Shown here piece by piece: positions 7,958-23,472 of a DNA stretch of 36,581 nucleotides. Position 1 is the stretch's first letter. Each line of letters opens with the position of its first letter. The DNA is from a virus. Position numbers and translations under genes: made by a program. Below the pieces are notes generated by a model. That model had not been told where the DNA came from. It saw only the letters and a program-made list of their open reading frames with translations, and did no database searches. Where the stretch lies: IMG/VR virus record IMGVR_UViG_3300024344_000053, positions 1-36,581 of that record; one strand, given 5' to 3'.

Positions 7958-8181
7958 GCTATAAAATCTAAATCTACTATTAAGAGAACTATACCTGTGG
8001 CTATACCTGCACCTGCAAATGTTGCTAATGCGTCCATAATGTCAGGCTTTCCATGTCCCATATTATCAATCAGTTCCTTTCCTACACCGAAAAAGAACCC
8101 TGACAATATCATTGGGAAATATAATACGCCCATAATGCTTAGGGCAAATCCTACAATAAAATGGGCTAGTTTATCATTCAT
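7948..8181 (-). CDS. Small membrane protein, holin-like candidate (77 aa)
   Basis: ATGA overlap with the preceding stop favours MNDKLAHF at 8181 over earlier codons. There are two or three hydrophobic segments (about residues 6-30 and 45-70) separated by a polar turn with GKELIDNMGHGKPDIMDALA. This His/Lys-Glu/Asp pattern recurs in small phage membrane proteins of unknown function (VanZ-like in style). It lies between the MuF-like and protease genes, an odd place for a holin; it could also be a virion membrane protein. Confidence 0.65.
   Translation of the reverse strand: MNDKLAHFIVGFALSIMGVLYFPMILSGFFFGVGKELIDNMGHGKPDIMDALATFAGAGIATGIVLLIVDLDFIAWH
7980..7991 (-). promoter_or_regulatory. Late-promoter element before the prohead protease
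   Basis: TAGTTCTCTTAA on the minus strand, with TAGTTC 29-34 bases before ATG 7957. It lies inside the 3' end of the membrane gene, so it would be an internal promoter for protease, decoration and capsid. Confidence 0.45.
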
Positions 8182-8660
8182 ATTTTGTTTAACCACTTTC
8201 CAATTAATTCTATACTTGCGTCCTTGTATGGATAATCAGGTATGTTTTTTTGCCATGCGTCATTCTCTTTCATGGTATCTATGATCAAGTCTAGTTTTTT
8301 CTGTGTAAGGTATTTTCTATGTTCTAACAAATATTTTTCTCTTTCCTTATCGTTGAGTTTCTTTGATGGCATACCTCTTTGTTTTATTCTGTCACTTGAT
8401 ATGTCTGTGACAATCTGTCCTGTGTCCTTTTCAACATAATAACATCTGCAATTAGGGTGGGTATCGTCAGGGATTACAGGTCTTAATGGATCATCTATGT
8501 CAAATTCTAAACCTGCTAATTCGATACAAACTTTATCATCTACCTTGTTATCTCTTTGCGTTGTATAGACTACCTTTGATGGTTTTTCTTCATCAAGGAC
8601 ATCAAACATACTAATTGCATTAACATATCTTGCTAATGCGTTTAATTCTTTAAGATTCAT
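8178..8660 (-). CDS. MuF-like minor head protein, C-terminal type
   Basis: 160 residues from MNLKELNAL at 8660; in-frame Met codons upstream exist but would lie deep in the 45-residue gene. The key signature is Cys45 followed by GLEFDIDD and then HPNCRC at residues 68-73: the 'C...l.G..f.....HpnCRC' motif of the SPP1 gp7/Mu F family, which binds the portal inside the head. The usual N-terminal helical region is missing, so this is a short, C-terminal-type version. Located two genes after the portal, as expected. Confidence 0.75.
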   Translation of the reverse strand: MNLKELNALARYVNAISMFDVLDEEKPSKVVYTTQRDNKVDDKVCIELAGLEFDIDDPLRPVIPDDTHPNCRCYYVEKDTGQIVTDISSDRIKQRGMPSKKLNDKEREKYLLEHRKYLTQKKLDLIIDTMKENDAWQKNIPDYPYKDASIELIGKWLNKI

Positions 8661-8787
8661 AGTAAATGTTTTCATGGGTTTCATTACCATTTTCATCTAT
8701 AACCCATTTTTGTGCAGTTGAAGCTTCTTCTTCATTATCTACAATGTTACCCTTATTATCAAAGAATAAAATGATAGTTTCTGTCAT
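8650..8787 (-). CDS. Acidic small protein (45 aa)
   Basis: Starts MTETIILFFDNKGNIVDNEE and ends NETHENIYYES. The start overlaps the stop of the zincin gene (TAATG) and its 3' end overlaps the MuF-like start by 11 bases, so it is tightly coupled in the head operon. The beta-hairpin-like start (FFDNKGNIV) resembles small phage proteins of unknown role. Confidence 0.65.
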   Translation of the reverse strand: MTETIILFFDNKGNIVDNEEEASTAQKWVIDENGNETHENIYYES

Positions 8788-9749
8788 TATTGATGAAGTT
8801 CCTCATAAGCTTTAAAGTATTGTTTAAGACGTGGATTAACATCTTTTACTGTCTTTGTCCCTGCTATTAATTCTGTAATTGCAGAATGTGTTTCATTTGC
8901 ATATATTTCCTTTGACCAATTCTGAACATTTTCATTTGCATAGAAATCTTTTTTAGCTTTCTTTATTTCGTCTTTTGTGAAAGCCATTGATTTTTTCATT
9001 CTTTTTTCTTTTGCCTTCCATGCGTTATCTATATTTTTTTCAGGGTTAGAAAAACTTGCAACATAATCATTCAGTGGGTAATTTCTAATCTCGTCAGAAG
9101 ATATGGTATTAGTAAATTTACTAATTTTGTCAGGTGATTCTTTTTTAATATTGTCAAATTTTGCGTGAGCAAGTTCGTGTTGAATTGTGTTATAAATGTG
9201 ATCTGTTCTGTTCATACCAACACTACTATGTATGTATATTTCCAATTCACCTGTGCCTGAATTGTATGAACCTGCATTTACACCACCAACAGAATAATTA
9301 CTTTTTTTTACAGACGAAATATTTAGACTACTAATTTGATTACGATCATCATCTGACAAACCATTCCAAGCGTCCCTAACTGCTTTTAATTGTAGGACTT
9401 TTTGTGTGGGTGTTGTGGAAATATATTTATCATAATTTTTAAGTTCTTTAGATAAAGAACTACTTATTTTAAGTTGTGATTCATTTCTAAACCCAACTTT
9501 ACCATACCCCTGTGTGTTTTTTTCAATAGGTAATACAGGCATTTCTTTGTATATTTTTTCCATAACATCTGTGTTATTTTTTGATTCTGTAATTTTTTTT
9601 CTTAGTTCTTGTGTTTCCTTAATTGCTTTATCTAATGCTCTGTAATGCCCTGTATCTTTACTATAATTATCACGACTAACTCTAAGATATTCTTCATAAT
9701 CTTCATTAATCTCTAATTTTGTATTAATCATTTGTTGTCTAATATCCAT
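8787..9749 (-). CDS. Zincin metallopeptidase linked to the portal gene
   Basis: 320 residues from ATG 9749. HELAH at 191-195 is a zinc-binding HExxH in a context (IYNTIQHELAHAKF) typical of gluzincin-like phage peptidases; NETHSAITEL near 285-295 could supply the third zinc ligand Glu. The N-terminal 120 residues are helical. The same frame stays open for 56 codons upstream of the ATG, right back to the slippery run at the end of the portal gene, and contains no ATG, GTG or TTG there, so the natural product may be a portal-peptidase fusion. Between portal and MuF it may act in the capsid or be delivered with DNA. Substrate unknown. Confidence 0.75.
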   Translation of the reverse strand: MDIRQQMINTKLEINEDYEEYLRVSRDNYSKDTGHYRALDKAIKETQELRKKITESKNNTDVMEKIYKEMPVLPIEKNTQGYGKVGFRNESQLKISSSLSKELKNYDKYISTTPTQKVLQLKAVRDAWNGLSDDDRNQISSLNISSVKKSNYSVGGVNAGSYNSGTGELEIYIHSSVGMNRTDHIYNTIQHELAHAKFDNIKKESPDKISKFTNTISSDEIRNYPLNDYVASFSNPEKNIDNAWKAKEKRMKKSMAFTKDEIKKAKKDFYANENVQNWSKEIYANETHSAITELIAGTKTVKDVNPRLKQYFKAYEELHQ

Positions 9750-9923
9750 ACGCTTATTGACTAATTCCTGCTTTATTTCCTTTTCCTGCGTTTCTTCTAC
9801 TTCGTTATCTAGTTTTTCATCTTCCTCGTCCTTATCATCTGCGTCAGGATCTTCGGTGAATTGACCGTCAGGATCTCTAGGGTGTTCGTGTTCTTTAAAT
9901 TCCGAAGCGTTCAGAGCTTTTTT
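9750..9923 (-). other. Candidate -1 frameshift site and fusion linker, portal to zincin
   Basis: The heptamer A_AAA_AAG (9917-9923) is in the right phase of the portal frame, inside a run of ten A and six bases before the portal stop TGA (9911-9913). A -1 slip continues into GCT CTG AAC and then through 56 sense codons to ATG 9749 of the zincin. The linker reads ALNASEFKEHEHPRDPDGQF and then a long acidic stretch. 'HPRDxxGqF' is a linker phrase I know from phage minor-head and portal-adjacent proteins, so it looks translated. The fusion would have about 881 residues. An assembly error in the A run would give the same picture. Confidence 0.6.
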
Positions 9924-11431
9924 TTTTCTTGGTCACTGACAAGTCCTTCTATCTTGTCTAGTATGTCAAGCTTCTTTGCGTCTAGTGCTGATTTAATTAA
10001 TTCACTGTCTATTGCCTTTGCAGACACAGGTGTTTGGTTCATGGTCTTGTTGAGTTGTTTATTGACAATATCCTGTGGTGTGTTTACAGGGACATTGACA
10101 CCTTGTTGGTCAACCTGTGGGTTTGGGCTTTGTGCCAACTCTGTCTTAAATTCTTCCAAGTTTAGTAATTCTAATAATTGGTCGTCAGGCATATTTGGGA
10201 ATATTCCTTTAATTCTTAATACTGCGTCCACTAGGTCAAACCATGATTCTATTACGATTGGTTCAAACTCTGCTCTTACTCTGACCTTTTCTAATATGTC
10301 ACCCATGCCCATCTTGCGTAGGTTTCTTTCATACCATTGTTGAGAAACTAAATCACTAATCCATTCACGTCTTGCTTTTACAACACCTTGAACAAAGAAC
10401 TGAATCTTTCCGATTAATGTAGCCCTGTTTTGATCTTCTTCCCTACCCAATAATGCACTAGGAACTGCAAAGTTTCCAATGATTATTCTTTCGTAGAAGG
10501 AAGCCAACTCTACCATTTCCTTAATCTTAGGATTTAGGTCTAATTCTTTAAACTCAATTTCATCATTTGCGTCAACTGTGACAGCATTGAAAGCACCTGA
10601 ATTTAATGAATCCAATAATGTAGCAGCGTCATTTTCTGCGTCTGCTTTTGTGCGTCCCATACGCTTCAAAATAAACATACCATATCCTGCCCACATGGAA
10701 GTAGTTATTTCAGGCATATCATATTCTACAATTCTACGCCATGCTCTTGCTGCACCTACTATTCTTTGCATTTCAGAATAGCCATACCACATAGTTCTAC
10801 GTCTTGGGCTATCAGGTCTGTTTACACAATATATCATTTCATTAGGCTTTAGTTCATCTGATGGGAATGTAGTAATTACTTTTTCAAGTGACCAATTCTT
10901 TTGGTCTAAAAATACTCTGCCCAAATCTCTTGGGTGGATAATCTTCAAAGCCTGTGGTAATCCGTTTCCTTCAAAGGCTATGACACATCTGCCAAATACT
11001 ATGGTCATTGTGATAGCGTCCTTTAGTTTCTTTTCAAAGTTAATCTTTTCATCATAGTGAATTAATTCGTTTAGTTCATCTTCATATTTTTTAAGTTCTT
11101 TAGATTTCTGTTCATCATCTAATCCATGATCATCAATCAGTTCAAATGTTGGTTTGATACCACCACCAAATGTATATTCAATTAGTTTATCTATTGTTGC
11201 ACCTGCTACACTAGAACCCCAAGCGTCCTCAAAGAACTCTAAGTCTTGGTCAGTATATGGTGGGTTGGAATACATATTGAGCATTGTATTTGCGTCTAAT
11301 CTTTTGGAAGCAGAAGCGTATGTTTTTGGAACTATGTCAGGATAAGTTTTCTTTGAGATAGTTCTGTGTGCATTACTCTTGATTGTTGCTGCTTTCTTAG
11401 TAGTTTTTTTTGTAGTCTTTCTAGCTACCAT
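9911..11431 (-). CDS. Portal protein
   Basis: 506 residues, with a Lys/Ala-rich basic N-terminus. Portal-like features: YSNPPYTDQDLEFFE near residue 50, a wing region, FGRCVIAFEG and IHPRDLGRVF, then the clip/stem region PSALLGREEDQNRATLIGKI, in which 'G..eeqN.at...' is a well-known portal phrase. The C-terminus (VSDQEKKKL) ends in the slippery A run described separately. It forms the dodecameric DNA channel at the capsid vertex and binds the terminase. Start ATG 11431 has a TAGTTC/TATA promoter at the standard spacing. Confidence 0.85.
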   Translation of the reverse strand: MVARKTTKKTTKKAATIKSNAHRTISKKTYPDIVPKTYASASKRLDANTMLNMYSNPPYTDQDLEFFEDAWGSSVAGATIDKLIEYTFGGGIKPTFELIDDHGLDDEQKSKELKKYEDELNELIHYDEKINFEKKLKDAITMTIVFGRCVIAFEGNGLPQALKIIHPRDLGRVFLDQKNWSLEKVITTFPSDELKPNEMIYCVNRPDSPRRRTMWYGYSEMQRIVGAARAWRRIVEYDMPEITTSMWAGYGMFILKRMGRTKADAENDAATLLDSLNSGAFNAVTVDANDEIEFKELDLNPKIKEMVELASFYERIIIGNFAVPSALLGREEDQNRATLIGKIQFFVQGVVKARREWISDLVSQQWYERNLRKMGMGDILEKVRVRAEFEPIVIESWFDLVDAVLRIKGIFPNMPDDQLLELLNLEEFKTELAQSPNPQVDQQGVNVPVNTPQDIVNKQLNKTMNQTPVSAKAIDSELIKSALDAKKLDILDKIEGLVSDQEKKKL

Positions 11432-12082: not shown

Positions 12083-12254
12083 TGTCTTTCTTTTCGTCCT
12101 CTAATTCTTCCATTAAGGTCATAGCCATTACGCTTACTTTTCTAAATGTTGCATGGTCGTCTTCTGTTATCTCTTTCCCACCTGCAAATGCTAATTCAAA
12201 CCAAGCCATAATTTTCTTGTAATCTTTAATTCTTAATGATAACTCTACACTCAT
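12075..12254 (-). CDS. Small helical protein after the terminase nuclease (59 aa)
   Basis: MSVELSLRIKDYKKIMAWFE followed by AFAGGKEITEDDHATFRKV and an acidic helical end. ATGA overlap with the nuclease gene stop shows coupled translation. Perhaps a terminase accessory protein; nothing more specific can be seen. Confidence 0.7.
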   Translation of the reverse strand: MSVELSLRIKDYKKIMAWFELAFAGGKEITEDDHATFRKVSVMAMTLMEELEDEKKDNA

Positions 12255-12919
12255 GGTCTATACACTTCCCTGCTTAATGATGTCAACCCATGTGGGACAC
12301 CTGTGCCATACACATCTTCTTCTTGTATTGTGAATTTTTTACTCACTACTGTCTGTTTCTGTGAAAATCCATCTGCACCTTTAATGAATGACCTGCCAAT
12401 AAAACACGCTAACATTAGTGCCATTACGGTATCATCATGCTCTGTTCCCTCTGCCCTGTATGATACATTACCTGCTTCTGTAATATGTTCACTGAATATT
12501 GCTATCTGTCTTTTCAATTCCTCTACGTCCTTGTTGGTTGTCTTTGGGAACTTTATTCTGTTTTGTTGAAACATTCTCGCCATGAACCATACCATCTGAT
12601 TCTTTGGCATAACCCTACCTGTATTGATTTTAGATTGGTCTTTAGTTTCTCTAGTGGTGAATGTTGGTATTACATTAGGGATATGGTGTCTATACTTTAG
12701 TTCTTCAAAGACGTGTTCACCTGTGTTGTTAATCTCTACCACATAGTAGTTGAATGGTTTCTCATCATGTATCTTGGATATTAAATTCTCTACCTCTATG
12801 TATTTTCTGCCAAGCCATGTCTTGACACCCAATACGTGTATGTTATTATTCTTAATCTCAATTCCTACAAATGCAAAACTATCTCGCATTTTACCACTGT
12901 CAATTCCTGCTATTCTCAT
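12251..12919 (-). CDS. terL (nuclease part): Terminase large subunit, nuclease protein (separate gene)
   Basis: 222 residues from ATG 12919; a GTG at 12928 is possible but would precede the first beta strand. RNase H-like fold with the terminase acidic triad: GIDSGK (Asp7) in strand 1, VVEINNTGEH (Glu62), and TEHDDTVMAL (Asp162/163) in the last helix. This is exactly the C-terminal nuclease of a large terminase that cuts concatemeric DNA during packaging, but it has no ATPase domain. The ATPase is a separate gene (13516-14415) with three small genes between. The stop overlaps the next ATG. Confidence 0.85.
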   Translation of the reverse strand: MRIAGIDSGKMRDSFAFVGIEIKNNNIHVLGVKTWLGRKYIEVENLISKIHDEKPFNYYVVEINNTGEHVFEELKYRHHIPNVIPTFTTRETKDQSKINTGRVMPKNQMVWFMARMFQQNRIKFPKTTNKDVEELKRQIAIFSEHITEAGNVSYRAEGTEHDDTVMALMLACFIGRSFIKGADGFSQKQTVVSKKFTIQEEDVYGTGVPHGLTSLSREVYRP

Positions 12920-12985
12920 TTTACACACCTACGCAAGTATTGAAGAACCAATTTGTAAACCAATACCAACCACCATCATTACATA

Positions 12986-13105
12986 TCAAAATTTAGCACC
13001 ACAACCTTTGCAAGTAGAAAATCCTTTACTTGCACCGTCATTCTTTCCCCATGTCCAATTCCAACCCTGTGCCTTCTTGCATTTAGGGCATGGTTGTATG
13101 CTCAT
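12986..13105 (-). CDS. Zinc-ribbon microprotein (39 aa) inside the terminase gene set
   Basis: CPKC near residue 6 and CKGC near residue 33 make a four-Cys ribbon with a Trp-rich loop (GWNWTWGK). ATGA overlap with the preceding gene. It sits between the two terminase halves and could bridge them or bind DNA ends; that is inference. Confidence 0.7.
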   Translation of the reverse strand: MSIQPCPKCKKAQGWNWTWGKNDGASKGFSTCKGCGAKF

Positions 13106-13338
13106 TCCTTTTCTACCCACACCCATTTGCCTTCTTTCTTAGGCTTTTCAGTTAGGGATAGCAAGTTGTATGCGTTGCATAGTTTGTAAACTAATTTAGT
13201 CCTCTCAACACCTTTGAGTTCAGAATAGTATAACTCACGTTTTAGGTCGTCTATTATGTCCTGTATTTGTTGTCTGTCAGGAACTTCCCATTCAGGTTCA
13301 TTGAATGGATTATGGTTCTTTAGCCATTCACCTATCAT
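13102..13338 (-). CDS. Helical protein between terminase halves (78 aa)
   Basis: From ATG 13338 (MIGEWLKNHNPF); an earlier GTG exists. A Trp/Pro-rich N-terminus is followed by two amphipathic helices (QIQDIIDDLKRELYYSELKG, TKLVYKLCNAYNLLSL). Overlaps the previous gene by 11 bases. No known family recognised. Confidence 0.65.
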   Translation of the reverse strand: MIGEWLKNHNPFNEPEWEVPDRQQIQDIIDDLKRELYYSELKGVERTKLVYKLCNAYNLLSLTEKPKKEGKWVWVEKE

Positions 13339-13519
13339 TTCTATCACCTATCAGCTTTTCTAATATTTCATGTTGTAGCCCTATGGTTTCTTTCATGTAA
13401 TCAATCTCTTTTTGCTGCCTTTCAAACAGGTCATGTAATGCTTCTATGGAATTAGCATTGGCTTCCTGTGCTATTGTTATTTGGAATAAGTTTGGTAAAT
13501 CTTCATCATTTATTTTCAA
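13328..13519 (-). CDS. Coiled-coil mini-protein with TTG start (63 aa)
   Basis: The only plausible start is TTG 13519, which overlaps the terminase ATPase stop as TTGA, the TTG version of the usual ATGA coupling. The body is one long heptad helix (LHDLFERQQKEIDYMKETIG). It may oligomerise or act as a linker for the split terminase. Confidence 0.6.
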   Translation of the reverse strand: MKINDEDLPNLFQITIAQEANANSIEALHDLFERQQKEIDYMKETIGLQHEILEKLIGDRNDR

Positions 13520-14415
13520 TATTCCTCTACCTCATAATCCTCTGTGGATTCGTTAGTAATAACACCAAAGATACTATTCCTTGCACTTGTAAATTGACAT
13601 CTGTATTCTTGGTCAACGTCAATGTCTGTTCTCTTTAGTTCCTCGTCCATTTCCTCTTTAGTGTAAATCCACCCTATTGCGTTTGTGTAGTCGTAGTGTA
13701 GTTTCTTGTAATCATTCTCGCTTATGCTTATCTCATAGAAGAATCCTCTCTGTGAACGTGGTGTAGATACTAGGAACAAATCAGATTTGTTAGTCATAAC
13801 GATTGGTTCTACTGCGTCTAATACGACACTATCATCTACCAAGCCAAAGTGTGCAGCTTCGTCAATTAGTATAGCCTTAATCTTTGTATCACCACGTATG
13901 GCTTCTGAATTACTAGGCAATCCCTCTATCTCTGTGCCATTCTTTAGCTTGATGAGTAGGTCATTTGAATTACCATCTACTGTTTCCTGTATTGGTTTGA
14001 ATAGTTGTCTAAGCCTACCCATTACCTTTTTTGTGGTCTTTTCCCTAGTTCCTGCAATAATCATTATCCTTCCTGATTCATACTTGTGAAAAGCTTGATA
14101 CTGTATTATCCTCAAACATATCTCTGTAAGCCCTATCTGTCTGCTCTTGTTTACGTGAAATTTTAGATGTTTATCTGATAATGCCTGTTTAACCAAATCA
14201 TCTTGATGTGGCATATACTTCATTGGTAGTAATGTTGCAGGGTGTTGTGGTAATCCTACCCTATGTGAGAAACAACAGTTAGGCTTTTCATTGATATTAC
14301 CACAGAAGAATTTTAGTTTCTTTAGTTCAGCAGATATGTCTTCTTCTACTGCGTCATGATCAGTTTGGAAGCTTGGATATATGTCCTGTATTTTGTATTC
14401 CTTTTTGTGTGTCAT
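13516..14415 (-). CDS. terL (ATPase part): Terminase large subunit, ATPase protein (separate gene)
   Basis: 299 residues. Walker A variant NKSRQIGLTE (Lys90-Thr97), Walker B ILIDE (182-186) followed by AAHFG, and coupling motif VSTPRS (216-221): the packaging-motor ATPase of tailed viruses. It ends at VEEY soon after IFGVITNE, which in ordinary terminases leads into the nuclease domain, so the split falls at the natural interdomain linker. The N-terminus overlaps the small-terminase candidate by 56 bases. It powers DNA packaging at the portal. Confidence 0.9.
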   Translation of the reverse strand: MTHKKEYKIQDIYPSFQTDHDAVEEDISAELKKLKFFCGNINEKPNCCFSHRVGLPQHPATLLPMKYMPHQDDLVKQALSDKHLKFHVNKSRQIGLTEICLRIIQYQAFHKYESGRIMIIAGTREKTTKKVMGRLRQLFKPIQETVDGNSNDLLIKLKNGTEIEGLPSNSEAIRGDTKIKAILIDEAAHFGLVDDSVVLDAVEPIVMTNKSDLFLVSTPRSQRGFFYEISISENDYKKLHYDYTNAIGWIYTKEEMDEELKRTDIDVDQEYRCQFTSARNSIFGVITNESTEDYEVEEY

Positions 14416-16077: not shown

Positions 16078-16863
16078 TCATCTACAATCACTAATTATTC
16101 CATCTACATAATCACATTGGTTGGGAATCCAACTAGGTCTTGGATAGCCAAATCCATCTTCACCGTAAATTTTGATTAACATTTGTATGTCTTCATGTTG
16201 AACTGACTTTGTTGTGTTTTTCCAAATCTCTAATGAATGATACATGATAGACCTTTCTTGACATTGACCTGCCAAACATGATGGATCATGTAAGTAATAA
16301 TGCCCTAAACCTAATCCATGTCCAAACTCATGCAGCAATATATTTCTAATGTCAATCATATCCAAATCTTTTGGTTGTAATGTTAGATTCACTTTACTGT
16401 CACCACCTATTGATATTGTAATTTTCTGTGGTGGGTAAGCTTGTGTGTATGTTGTGATAAAAGAATACTTGTGGCTACTTTTAGAAAAATCAAATCCTGT
16501 TGTGCCAAGTGATGAATCACCACTCAACTGATCAAATGTTAAAAATATATCACATTCAGGAAAATCTCTAGGTGTTTTTTTATCATGTGTATGAAATGGA
16601 TATTCATATATGGGAAAATCCCAATTTCCATTTGTTGCTTGATTAAGTTTTAGTTCCCATTCCCAAATTGCTGAACGAGTTATGTCATACATATACGGAT
16701 AGAATAATGGTTCTAATTCAGGATTAGGTGACATAATACAGGACACAGGATTATTGGTTTGGTATAATCCAAGTGTGTCCATGTAATCACCAAATGCTAG
16801 TCCCAATAGTCCAAAAATTAAAAGTGAACAAACTACTGCATAAAGTGCTGCAAAGATATACAT
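16078..16863 (-). CDS. Matrixin-like zinc metallopeptidase with membrane anchor/signal
   Basis: 261 residues. Residues 2-25 form a hydrophobic signal or anchor (FAALYAVVCSLLIFGLLGLA). Residues 178-188, HEFGHGLGLGH, are the full metzincin zinc site HExxHxxGxxH, followed by a Met-turn (SIMYHSL, about 205-211). This defines the M10 (matrixin) group. Paired Cys (SCLAGQC) lie between site and turn. The product should act outside the cytoplasmic membrane, perhaps on the S-layer or other surface proteins during entry or exit. It follows immediately on a Cys-rich microprotein gene (TAG-ATG with no gap). Confidence 0.85.
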   Translation of the reverse strand: MYIFAALYAVVCSLLIFGLLGLAFGDYMDTLGLYQTNNPVSCIMSPNPELEPLFYPYMYDITRSAIWEWELKLNQATNGNWDFPIYEYPFHTHDKKTPRDFPECDIFLTFDQLSGDSSLGTTGFDFSKSSHKYSFITTYTQAYPPQKITISIGGDSKVNLTLQPKDLDMIDIRNILLHEFGHGLGLGHYYLHDPSCLAGQCQERSIMYHSLEIWKNTTKSVQHEDIQMLIKIYGEDGFGYPRPSWIPNQCDYVDGIISDCR

Positions 16864-16950
16864 CTAATCTGCCTGTCTGCTAATATGTTCTAATAGACAA
16901 GATTTGCACATCAATTCGTCATGTTCATGACAAGAGCAATCACAAGCCAT
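16864..16950 (-). CDS. Cys-rich microprotein (28 aa)
   Basis: MACDCSCHEHDELMCKSCLL and eight more residues: six Cys and two adjacent His, a likely zinc (or two-zinc) site. It overlaps the end of one matrixin gene by 11 bases and touches the start of the other, so the three are coupled. A second microprotein at 23377-23472 shares the CxCSCH core. Confidence 0.6.
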   Translation of the reverse strand: MACDCSCHEHDELMCKSCLLEHISRQAD

Positions 16951-17602
16951 TTTTTCTTCTCATTAGCCATCTTGTGACAGCTTTGTAAATTCTAGGATTC
17001 CATCTTCTTTTGCCATATTTGTCTGTGATTCGTTTAATGTCATATTTGTTAAGATGTAGTTGTCCATTGTAAGACCACCACATTACTGACTTGCTATTGT
17101 TTGCGTCATGAGTTAGTCCCAAAGAATGTCCTATTTCATGGATAAGGACGTGAACCATATTCCAAGTCTTGATTGTGGTTCTTGTGCCAAATGGGTATTG
17201 CATTGGATATGCTTCATGTGCATTTACAGGGTTGCCATTTAATGACCAAAGATAGTCTTCATTGAATACTATTTTTCCTGCATGGCTTGTTTTAGGATAA
17301 TAGGCATAAGCCAATGTGCCTTTTTTTAGGTGTTCATCATTTTCGCTTTTGACGAAATTAATGAAAATGTCAGGGGTTTTATTTCCCCTGACACTCTTTA
17401 ATTTTAAAGGTATTTCAAAATTCCATGTTGACATGGCTAAATTTACTGCCTTTGTTTCTAATGCTCTACCCTTGATGTCTTCACTATCAACTTGTAAAGC
17501 ATAATAGACAACCTGTTTATCCCATTTGTGATTCCAATGTGTCTGATCTTCCTCTGAAAATTCTAGTTCACCATTGTTGTCACGAACATAACAAATTGCC
17601 AT
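16940..17602 (-). CDS. Matrixin-like zinc metallopeptidase, no signal peptide
   Basis: 220 residues. HEIGHSLGLTH at 155-165 is a complete metzincin site and SVMWW (Met174) the Met-turn. The N-terminal part (VVYYALQVDS, NLAMSTWNFEIPLKLK) fits the M10 catalytic fold (substrate strand and early helix). There is no hydrophobic leader, unlike its neighbour, so it may act in the cytoplasm, in the virion, or be released at lysis. It is clearly a second, diverged copy of the same enzyme type. Basic C-terminus (RWLMRRKNGL). Confidence 0.85.
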   Translation of the reverse strand: MAICYVRDNNGELEFSEEDQTHWNHKWDKQVVYYALQVDSEDIKGRALETKAVNLAMSTWNFEIPLKLKSVRGNKTPDIFINFVKSENDEHLKKGTLAYAYYPKTSHAGKIVFNEDYLWSLNGNPVNAHEAYPMQYPFGTRTTIKTWNMVHVLIHEIGHSLGLTHDANNSKSVMWWSYNGQLHLNKYDIKRITDKYGKRRWNPRIYKAVTRWLMRRKNGL

Positions 17603-19365: not shown

Positions 19366-19623
19366 TTAGAAAATCAAGTCCTGTTCGAACCACATTATGC
19401 GTTTTATCAGATTATGTTCCTGTTCTATGTCAATATCTTCTTCCGTATCTGTTATGATTTTATGAAAAACTTCATGTGATAATGTTGAAAGAATGTTTGG
19501 TATGCACTCTGAATGTGGTCTTAGATAAATTGCAATTCTGTTTGTGTCTTCAAAATATTCACCATAAGTTGAAACATCATCTTCTGCCATTAAGATGAAA
19601 TCAATTTTTACTGCACCTTTCAT
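19366..19623 (-). CDS. HExxH mini-protein, zincin-like (85 aa)
   Basis: STLSHEVFHKII contains HExxH near residues 54-58, followed by an acidic stretch with several candidate third ligands (EEDIDIEQEH). The preceding strands (RIAIYLRP) and the helix placement resemble the minimal core of IrrE/ImmA- or SprT-like zincins, but at 85 residues it is unusually short. Possible peptidase or a degenerate one; fourth HExxH protein of the window. Confidence 0.65.
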   Translation of the reverse strand: MKGAVKIDFILMAEDDVSTYGEYFEDTNRIAIYLRPHSECIPNILSTLSHEVFHKIITDTEEDIDIEQEHNLIKRIMWFEQDLIF

Positions 19624-22681: not shown

Positions 22682-23032
22682 CTATTCCCTTTTTAGTGGG
22701 TATATGTATAAACTTCCTTTAGGAAAAAGAGAGAGAGATAGAGAGTAATCATAATAAAATTTTCTTTCTTTCTTATCATAGGTAATGGAAGGGCATAAGT
22801 CTAAGAGCATTGGTTTGAGTTTGAGAAACCATGCAAGTGATATGCCTGTTCTATCTAATAGGTTAGCAGTTGTGATTCCTCTCTCTCTCTCTCTTTTTAT
22901 TTCTGCTTCACAAGTCCAACACTGTTGTTTCCATTTAGTAGTGTTGAGTTTCTTCTTAAGTTCCTCTGCTTTGCGTCTTTGTTTCTCTGCAACTGTGATA
23001 ACGTCTTTATCAAAAATTGTTTTACCTGCCAT
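22682..23032 (-). CDS. HTH-like protein carrying two GA/TC microsatellites (116 aa)
   Basis: MAGKTIFDKD at 23032 overlaps the resolvase stop by 11 bases and is preferred to an ATG further upstream. CWTC gives half a zinc site; GITTANLLDRTGISLAWFLK looks like a helix-turn-helix. Dinucleotide runs encode KRERERG in the middle and YSLSLSLFP near the C-terminus. Slippage in either run would change the reading frame. Confidence 0.6.
   Translation of the reverse strand: MAGKTIFDKDVITVAEKQRRKAEELKKKLNTTKWKQQCWTCEAEIKRERERGITTANLLDRTGISLAWFLKLKPMLLDLCPSITYDKKERKFYYDYSLSLSLFPKGSLYIYPLKRE
22725..22740. repeat. GA microsatellite, left arm of an inverted repeat
   Basis: AAAAAGAGAGAGAGA-type run; its complement appears at 22879-22897. 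Both lie inside one gene. Confidence 0.7.
22879..22897. repeat. TC microsatellite, right arm of the inverted repeat
   Basis: CCTCTCTCTCTCTCTTTTT-type run, reverse complement of the left arm over about 15 bases, about 140 bases away. Confidence 0.7.
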
Positions 23033-23405
23033 TCTTTTTCTTAAGAACACCTAGTATATCTAAGGCTTCATGGGTTATTTCTTGACCATCTAGTGTACGA
23101 AATTTGAGCTTTCTGTTATCTGACCATGCTATCAATAATGTCATTTGCCATTTGTTTTTACAAGCTTGAAGTTCTTCCCTTTCCTTTGGTGGGACATATC
23201 CGTTCTTTTTTGCCTGTATTCCTATGGTCTGATTAAACCACCCTGTTTTTACAAATGGTGGAATTGCTGTGACATCTGTAAGACCTTTTGACTTTGGTGA
23301 ACGTACAACAAAATAACCAAGTTTTCTGAAAAATGCTACTACCCTCATTTCAAAGCGATAGCCTATCAGGTAGTTCTTATTGACCAACCCTTCTAAAATC
23401 CTCAT
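23022..23405 (-). CDS. hjc-like: Archaeal-type Holliday junction resolvase (Hjc-like)
   Basis: 127 residues from ATG 23405 (a GTG at 23435 is possible). Core motifs of the archaeal Hjc nuclease fold: YRFEMRVV (Glu19), GYFVVRSPKSKG (the 'vRspgS.g' phrase), LTDVTAIPP (Asp44) and IGIQAKK (Gln64, Lys66). It would cleave four-way junctions formed during replication or recombination and so help make packageable DNA. Archaeal-type sequence supports an archaeal host. Confidence 0.85.
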   Translation of the reverse strand: MRILEGLVNKNYLIGYRFEMRVVAFFRKLGYFVVRSPKSKGLTDVTAIPPFVKTGWFNQTIGIQAKKNGYVPPKEREELQACKNKWQMTLLIAWSDNRKLKFRTLDGQEITHEALDILGVLKKKNGR

Positions 23406-23472
23406 TATGACAGGAACATCTACAATGCTTGTCACATTTCACATTAACACAACTTGTGCATTTTAATTTCAT
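23377..23472 (-). CDS. Cys-rich microprotein (31 aa)
   Basis: MKLKCTSCVNVKCDKHCRCS followed by CHNEDFRRVGQ: six Cys with two His. ATGA overlap with the preceding gene; it overlaps the resolvase start by 29 bases. Shares CxCSCH and an acidic follow-up with the 28-residue protein at 16864. Confidence 0.6.
   Translation of the reverse strand: MKLKCTSCVNVKCDKHCRCSCHNEDFRRVGQ

What the first reader, a model, noticed from the sequence alone, without database searches (positions are those of the whole stretch)
8787..9923. Possible programmed -1 frameshift making a portal-zincin fusion
A_AAA_AAG in portal phase lies within ten A and six bases before the portal stop. The -1 frame is then open for 56 codons, has no start codon, carries a plausible linker phrase (HPRDPDGQF), and runs into a HELAH metallopeptidase. 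Acidic linker codons look selected. The expected products are a 506-residue portal and about 881-residue fusion, so a few peptidase copies would be built into the portal vertex. I know of portal or MuF fusions to effector domains, but not of this frameshifted portal-peptidase form.
Basis: partly seen in the sequence, partly recalled or inferred. Interest (0 to 1): 0.85.

Follow-up and report, generated by a model that had tools for sequence, protein, structure and literature searches.

The report
Frameshifted portal-to-peptidase fusion in virus
In this virus, probably one that infects archaea, the gene for the DNA-entry ring of the capsid ends in a run of ten A's, directly followed in the next reading frame by a linker that many phages use to attach enzymes to that ring, so a slip on the A's would put a few peptidase copies on it; a second, unrelated phage has the same layout with a toxin, but no one has yet shown that the slip happens.

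Summary
The portal ORF (11431-9911, minus strand) has A10 six bases before its TGA. The -1 frame is open from there through HPRDPDGQF into a HELAH ORF, with no ATG, GTG or TTG before the linker. The linker scores as coding only in the -1 frame (+16.9 bits against -65 and -74). Its phrase is a real viral motif: at least 119 viral stretches encode HPRDxDGxFT, joining portals or MuF to effectors, or starting stand-alone effectors. Of 124 distinct contexts, only two have an upstream stop in view and no start codon: this window and L159. L159 is an unrelated HK97-type phage with portal, A9, -1 frame, linker and CdiA_C tRNase, plus a Shine-Dalgarno-like sequence and a downstream stem. All 18 portal relatives whose 3' ends could be read lack the module, so conservation could not be tested. 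Best reading: an accessory virion effector joined to a minority of portal subunits by a -1 shift (ribosomal or transcriptional). Still open: a miscounted homopolymer in a plain in-frame fusion, and a CTG start overlapping the portal stop. Verdict: new variant of a known kind (portal-linker-effector fusion); the frameshifted form was not found in the papers searched.

The parts
9911..11431 (-). Portal protein, 506 aa zero-frame product
   Evidence: Pfam Phage_portal 1.5e-6 (below cut-off) and PHROG portal match; neighbours TerL, MuF-like, cement and major head proteins; 23 viral relatives
9918..9927 (-). Run of ten A; A_AAA_AAG slip heptamer at 9917-9923, six bases before the portal stop
   Evidence: Read directly; longest homopolymer of the window
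9911..9913 (-). Portal TGA stop; overlaps an in-frame CTG of the -1 frame (CTGA)
   Evidence: relatives' portals stop at about the same place
9750..9917 (-). Linker in the -1 frame, 56 codons, no ATG/GTG/TTG
   Evidence: Coding score +16.9 bits only in this frame
9858..9884 (-). HPRDPDGQF linker motif
   Evidence: HPRDxDGxFT encoded in at least 119 stretches of viral contigs
8787..9749 (-). Rest of the effector ORF with zincin-like HELAH domain (HELAH at 9165-9179)
   Evidence: SprT-like 0.035-0.066; colinear 16.1-bit match to zincin domains that follow the same linker in other viruses
8650..8787 (-). 45-aa ORF overlapping the peptidase stop (TAATG), part of the same insertion
   Evidence: the insertion is absent from all 18 relatives read
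8178..8696 (-). MuF-like minor head gene that directly follows the portal in relatives
   Evidence: Phage_Mu_F 7e-4, phageSPP1_gp7 8e-5

Best explanation
An accessory effector module (HPRD linker plus zincin-like peptidase, with a small downstream ORF) was inserted between the portal and MuF genes. It is expressed as a C-terminal extension of a minority of portal subunits through a -1 shift on the A10 run, either ribosomal (A_AAA_AAG) or by RNA polymerase adding one A. Most portals stop at the TGA, close to where relatives' portals stop; a few of the 12 subunits would carry the peptidase. Portal C-termini generally face the capsid interior (established knowledge), so the peptidase would ride inside the head and probably act in the newly infected cell. 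Shown: the DNA layout, the coding linker, the motif family, and a second phage with the same layout. Inferred: that the shift occurs, its rate, incorporation into virions, and peptidase activity.
For: A10 with the A_AAA_AAG heptamer in portal phase and a stop two codons later. Linker coding only in the -1 frame. The linker motif joins portals to effectors in frame elsewhere: 8 of 10 long motif ORFs scanned have a portal domain before the motif. All 109 HPRDxDGxFT ORFs with an upstream stop in view have a start codon before the motif; in the wider set of 124 contexts only the window and L159 do not. L159: HK97-type portal (3e-78), A9, stop three codons later, -1 frame, no NTG codon, linker, CdiA_C (2e-10), with an SD-like AAGGGGAA about 10 nt upstream and a 10-bp stem 5 nt downstream. 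The other conserved window genes show no frame breaks against relatives. Precedent for A_AAA_AAR -1 shifting in archaea: PMC5009743.
Against: No RNA structure after the window's run. No relative carries the module, so no conservation. L159 was found by a scan that demanded an A run, so its run is not independent, and 8% of its contig folds as well as its stem region. Both records are metagenome assemblies, where losing one A from a longer run would give the same picture.
Confidence: 0.52

Rival explanations
1. The real genome (or most of the population) has 11 or 8 A, so portal, linker and peptidase are one continuous 881-aa ORF and all portal subunits carry the peptidase. The break is an assembly error or a phase-variable homopolymer allele.
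For: In-frame portal-linker-effector fusions are common. Homopolymers are the usual place for lost bases, and one lost A gives exactly a -1 phase in both cases.
Against: The zero frame stops within two codons (window) and three (L159); expected for 6-19% and 8-21% of single-base losses. The window's stop sits where relatives' portals end. Other conserved genes are unbroken.
Confidence: 0.22
2. The effector is a separate protein started at the CTG that overlaps the portal stop (CTGA) by coupled re-initiation, giving MNASEFKEHEHPRDPDGQF...
For: Stand-alone effectors begin 8-13 codons before the motif in a similar way, for example MSEFNEQDHPRD; the CTG is at the matching distance.
Against: CTG starts are rare; any TGA stop creates an NTG codon in the -1 frame; no motif ORF examined needs CTG; L159 has no NTG codon before its motif; no SD-like sequence at the right distance.
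Confidence: 0.16
3. Only the 320-aa peptidase from ATG 9749 is made and the linker is a remnant of an old fusion.
For: An ATG is present.
Against: The linker still scores as coding and matches the full motif consensus; only a weak AGGAA about 15 nt before the ATG; this would drop the linker that stand-alone effectors keep.
Confidence: 0.06

Closest known systems
Portal- and MuF-fused virion effectors / polyvalent proteins (Iyer et al. 2017, PMC5512222)
   Same: Effector domain attached to the C-terminus of a portal or MuF protein for delivery with the virion; zincin-like peptidases are the commonest polyvalent domain
   Different: There the fusions are single ORFs; here the effector is in the -1 frame behind an A10 run, so only some subunits would carry it
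MuF polymorphic toxins (Jamet et al. 2017, PMC5576092)
   Same: Effector genes at the portal-MuF position, 20% of MuF toxins with a metallopeptidase domain
   Different: The window's effector is linked to the portal side and its MuF-like gene is separate and has no extension
Programmed -1 frameshifting at A_AAA_AAR (dnaX, phage tail G-GT, archaeal Mg chelatase; PMC5009743, PMC3711429)
   Same: Slip heptamer, quick zero-frame stop, C-terminal extension; archaeal examples exist
   Different: Those two papers contain no mention of a portal; the window has no downstream structure
Nitrososphaera viennensis provirus Nvie-Pro1
   Same: Portal with a FNPYHDERGRF motif followed by an overlapping effector ORF (RelA/SpoT)
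   Different: Its effector is in the +1 frame and has its own GTG start

Membership tests
Programmed -1 ribosomal frameshift | Slippery heptamer X_XXY_YYZ in phase just before the zero-frame stop | tested here: met
   A_AAA_AAG at 9917-9923, stop at 9911-9913
Programmed -1 ribosomal frameshift | Open, coding -1 frame without its own start | tested here: met
   CTG is the only near-start
Programmed -1 ribosomal frameshift | Stimulatory element (upstream SD-like or downstream structure) | tested here: not met
   Window: no structure, GAAGGA too far upstream. L159 has both
Programmed -1 ribosomal frameshift | Conservation of site and frame in relatives | tested here: inconclusive
   No relative carries the module; one independent analogue, L159
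Programmed -1 ribosomal frameshift | Fusion product observed | not testable with these tools
   Needs proteomics or reporters
Portal-linker-effector fusion | HPRD-type linker between portal and effector | tested here: met
   Motif and context match, but out of frame in the record as it stands
Zincin-like metallopeptidase | HExxH plus a downstream third ligand | tested here: inconclusive
   HELAH present; third ligand ambiguous in the alignment; profile matches weak
Phage portal protein | Portal profile match and gene order TerL-portal-MuF-protease-capsid | tested here: met

The most novel reading that the evidence does not exclude
Tailed viruses of both archaea and bacteria use a programmed -1 shift at the end of the portal gene to decorate only a few of the twelve portal subunits with an injected effector, as a dosage device distinct from full portal fusions and from separate cargo genes.
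Probability: 0.4. Interest if true: 0.82.

Novelty: new variant of a known kind. Interest (0 to 1): 0.64.

Why it matters
If true, it is a simple way to set how many effector molecules a virion carries without disturbing the portal ring, which is fixed at twelve subunits, and it would place recoding at the portal gene, where the papers searched here report none. The linker motif also gives a practical handle: it marks virion-linked effectors (tRNases, ADP-ribosyltransferases, NUDIX, zincins) across viruses, and motif ORFs without a start codon flag recoding candidates.

Tried and rejected
Peptidase relatives by protein scan of viral contigs, phages, solved structures and the relatives' own records: none, and one search has no positive control. 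An exact HELAHAKF DNA scan found only an unrelated zincin-type ORF in L034. A pattern scan for other records of the same junction gave one chance match, L013. AlphaFold models of the peptidase (single sequence) and portal (10 rows) were too poor to use, so the location of the portal C-terminus rests on general knowledge. Two genome-contig scans for host proviruses found nothing; a thaumarchaeal host is suggested only by TerL similarity to Nvie-Pro1. Rhizobium phage RHph_N28_2 looked like a third case, but its motif ORF has GTG starts. Broken TerL as a sign of poor assembly was rejected: the split is conserved in relatives. The papers on corynephage phi16 and Wolbachia phage held portal plus frameshift terms but concern other genes.

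Full report
WHAT IS THERE. The portal ORF on the minus strand (11431-9911) ends in CAA GAA AAA AAA AAG CTC TGA; the ten A's are at 9918-9927. Stepping back one base opens a frame that runs without a stop through ALNASEFKEHEHPRDPDGQFTEDPDADD... into a HELAH-containing ORF ending at 8787. No ATG, GTG or TTG occurs in the first 56 codons. The fusion would be 881 aa and 101 kDa.

IS IT CHANCE? A10 somewhere in this A-rich coding sequence is unremarkable (P = 0.45 by codon shuffling), and related portals end in lysine-rich tails with runs of 4-8 A. The coincidence that matters is position: the run fills the short overlap between the portal frame and the linker frame. The linker is coding in the -1 frame only: +16.9 bits against -73.5 and -64.7, where in-frame stretches of the window's genes have a median of 22 and off-frame stretches a 95th percentile of -13.5.

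RELATIVES. Twenty-three viral contigs carry a related portal. In all 18 whose portal 3' end was read, the portal stops at nearly the same place and the MuF-like gene (window 8178-8696) follows at once, overlapping it. The peptidase plus a 45-aa ORF is therefore an accessory insertion, and the site's conservation cannot be tested inside the family. The other conserved window genes align to relatives without frame breaks, which speaks for a sound assembly in general. TerL is closest to the Nitrososphaera viennensis provirus Nvie-Pro1 (28.5% identity, E=4e-18), so the host is probably a thaumarchaeon. In that provirus the portal ends in FNPYHDERGRF and is overlapped by a RelA/SpoT effector ORF.

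THE LINKER IS A VIRAL MOTIF. The context is consistent: [WF]-x-E-x-x-H-P-R-D-x-D-G-K-F-T followed by Gly/Ser-rich sequence. In a first Pfam scan of ten long ORFs, eight carry a portal domain before the motif (PF06381 or PF06074), one of them followed by a PBECR3 nuclease; L155 adds a portal followed by a weak ParB_N match. Others are MuF-PBECR3, NUDIX, Acb1, ADP-ribosyltransferase, Zeta toxin and LPD13 proteins. Among annotated phages, the FP_Brigit portal contains the motif, as does a long ORF next to TerL in Orimi01 that is annotated hypothetical. Zincin-like domains lie downstream of the same linker in L066, L070, L089, L115 and L135; the window protein aligns colinearly with them at 16.1 bits, but an unrelated zincin-type ORF in L034 scores as high, so this shows zincin character only.

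THE START-CODON TEST. If the linker ORF were an ordinary separate gene it should have a start codon before the motif. All 109 HPRDxDGxFT ORFs with an upstream stop in view do. With a wider motif definition over all fetched loci there are 124 distinct contexts: 45 with more than 150 codons before the motif, 61 with a shorter N-terminus and a start codon, 2 without any start, and the rest running off a contig end. The two are this window and L159.

A SECOND CASE. L159 (IMGVR_UViG_3300011008_000300) was found by a scan for A6G followed by the motif. It has an HK97-type portal (PF04860, 3e-78), a run of nine A, a TAG three codons later, and in the -1 frame the linker FDESEHPRDEHGRFTDK and a CdiA_C tRNase domain (2e-10). 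Its nearest annotated portals are from phages of Firmicutes and others at about 35% identity, and it shows no sign of kinship to the window virus. No NTG codon precedes its motif. It carries AAGGGGAA about 10 nt upstream and a 10-bp stem starting 5 nt after the run. The fold is good for its composition (z -2.1 to -3.8 for 80-91 nt) but 8% of 91-nt windows in that contig fold as well. The scan required an A run, so the run itself is not independent evidence; the out-of-frame, start-less layout is.

MECHANISM AND RIVALS. A -1 shift, by ribosome or by polymerase, explains the run, the phase, the missing start, the coding linker and the second case. A homopolymer miscount in a continuous fusion explains the same facts except the quick stops at the natural portal end: within two codons is expected in 6-19% of single-base losses and within three in 8-21%. 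A CTG start overlapping the stop (CTGA) would produce a protein resembling stand-alone effectors in the window, but L159 offers no such codon and no motif ORF examined depends on CTG. Against programming in the window: no downstream structure and no conservation. I give about 0.52 to the shift, 0.22 to miscount or phase-variable fusion, 0.16 to the CTG start and 0.06 to the ATG-only peptidase.

KNOWN OR NEW. Portal and MuF fusions to effectors are known (PMC5512222, PMC5576092), and archaeal -1 frameshifting at A_AAA_AAR is known (PMC5009743). A frameshift at the portal-effector junction was not found in the papers searched; that library lacks most subscription journals. I therefore rate it a new variant of a known kind.

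Noticed in passing
12251-14415: TerL is encoded as two ORFs, ATPase (PF03237) and nuclease (PF17289), with small ORFs between; the split is conserved in all relatives, so it is a family trait.
   Followed up: partly
16078-17602: Two adjacent matrixin-like metallopeptidase genes (PF00413, 1.4e-7 and 4.6e-24), unusual cargo for a tailed virus.
   Followed up: partly
19366-19623: 85-aa ORF with another HExxH (HEVFHK), a possible fourth zincin-type gene in the window.
   Followed up: no
L035:5813-6445: Thaumarchaeal provirus Nvie-Pro1 has a RelA/SpoT-domain ORF overlapping the portal end, the same position as the window's peptidase.
   Followed up: partly
L162, L163, L165: HPRD-type linker inside portal or portal-adjacent ORFs of annotated phages FP_Brigit, Orimi01 and a Helicobacter pametensis prophage, none annotated as carrying an effector.
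   Followed up: partly
L012:1474-2936; L007:7171-7690: Portal ORF of L012 and MuF-like ORF of L007 look frame-broken compared with sister contigs.
   Followed up: no
23022-23435: Nuclease-like gene with a weak match to the Holliday-junction resolvase Hjc (0.03); several relatives carry it between TerL and portal instead.
   Followed up: no
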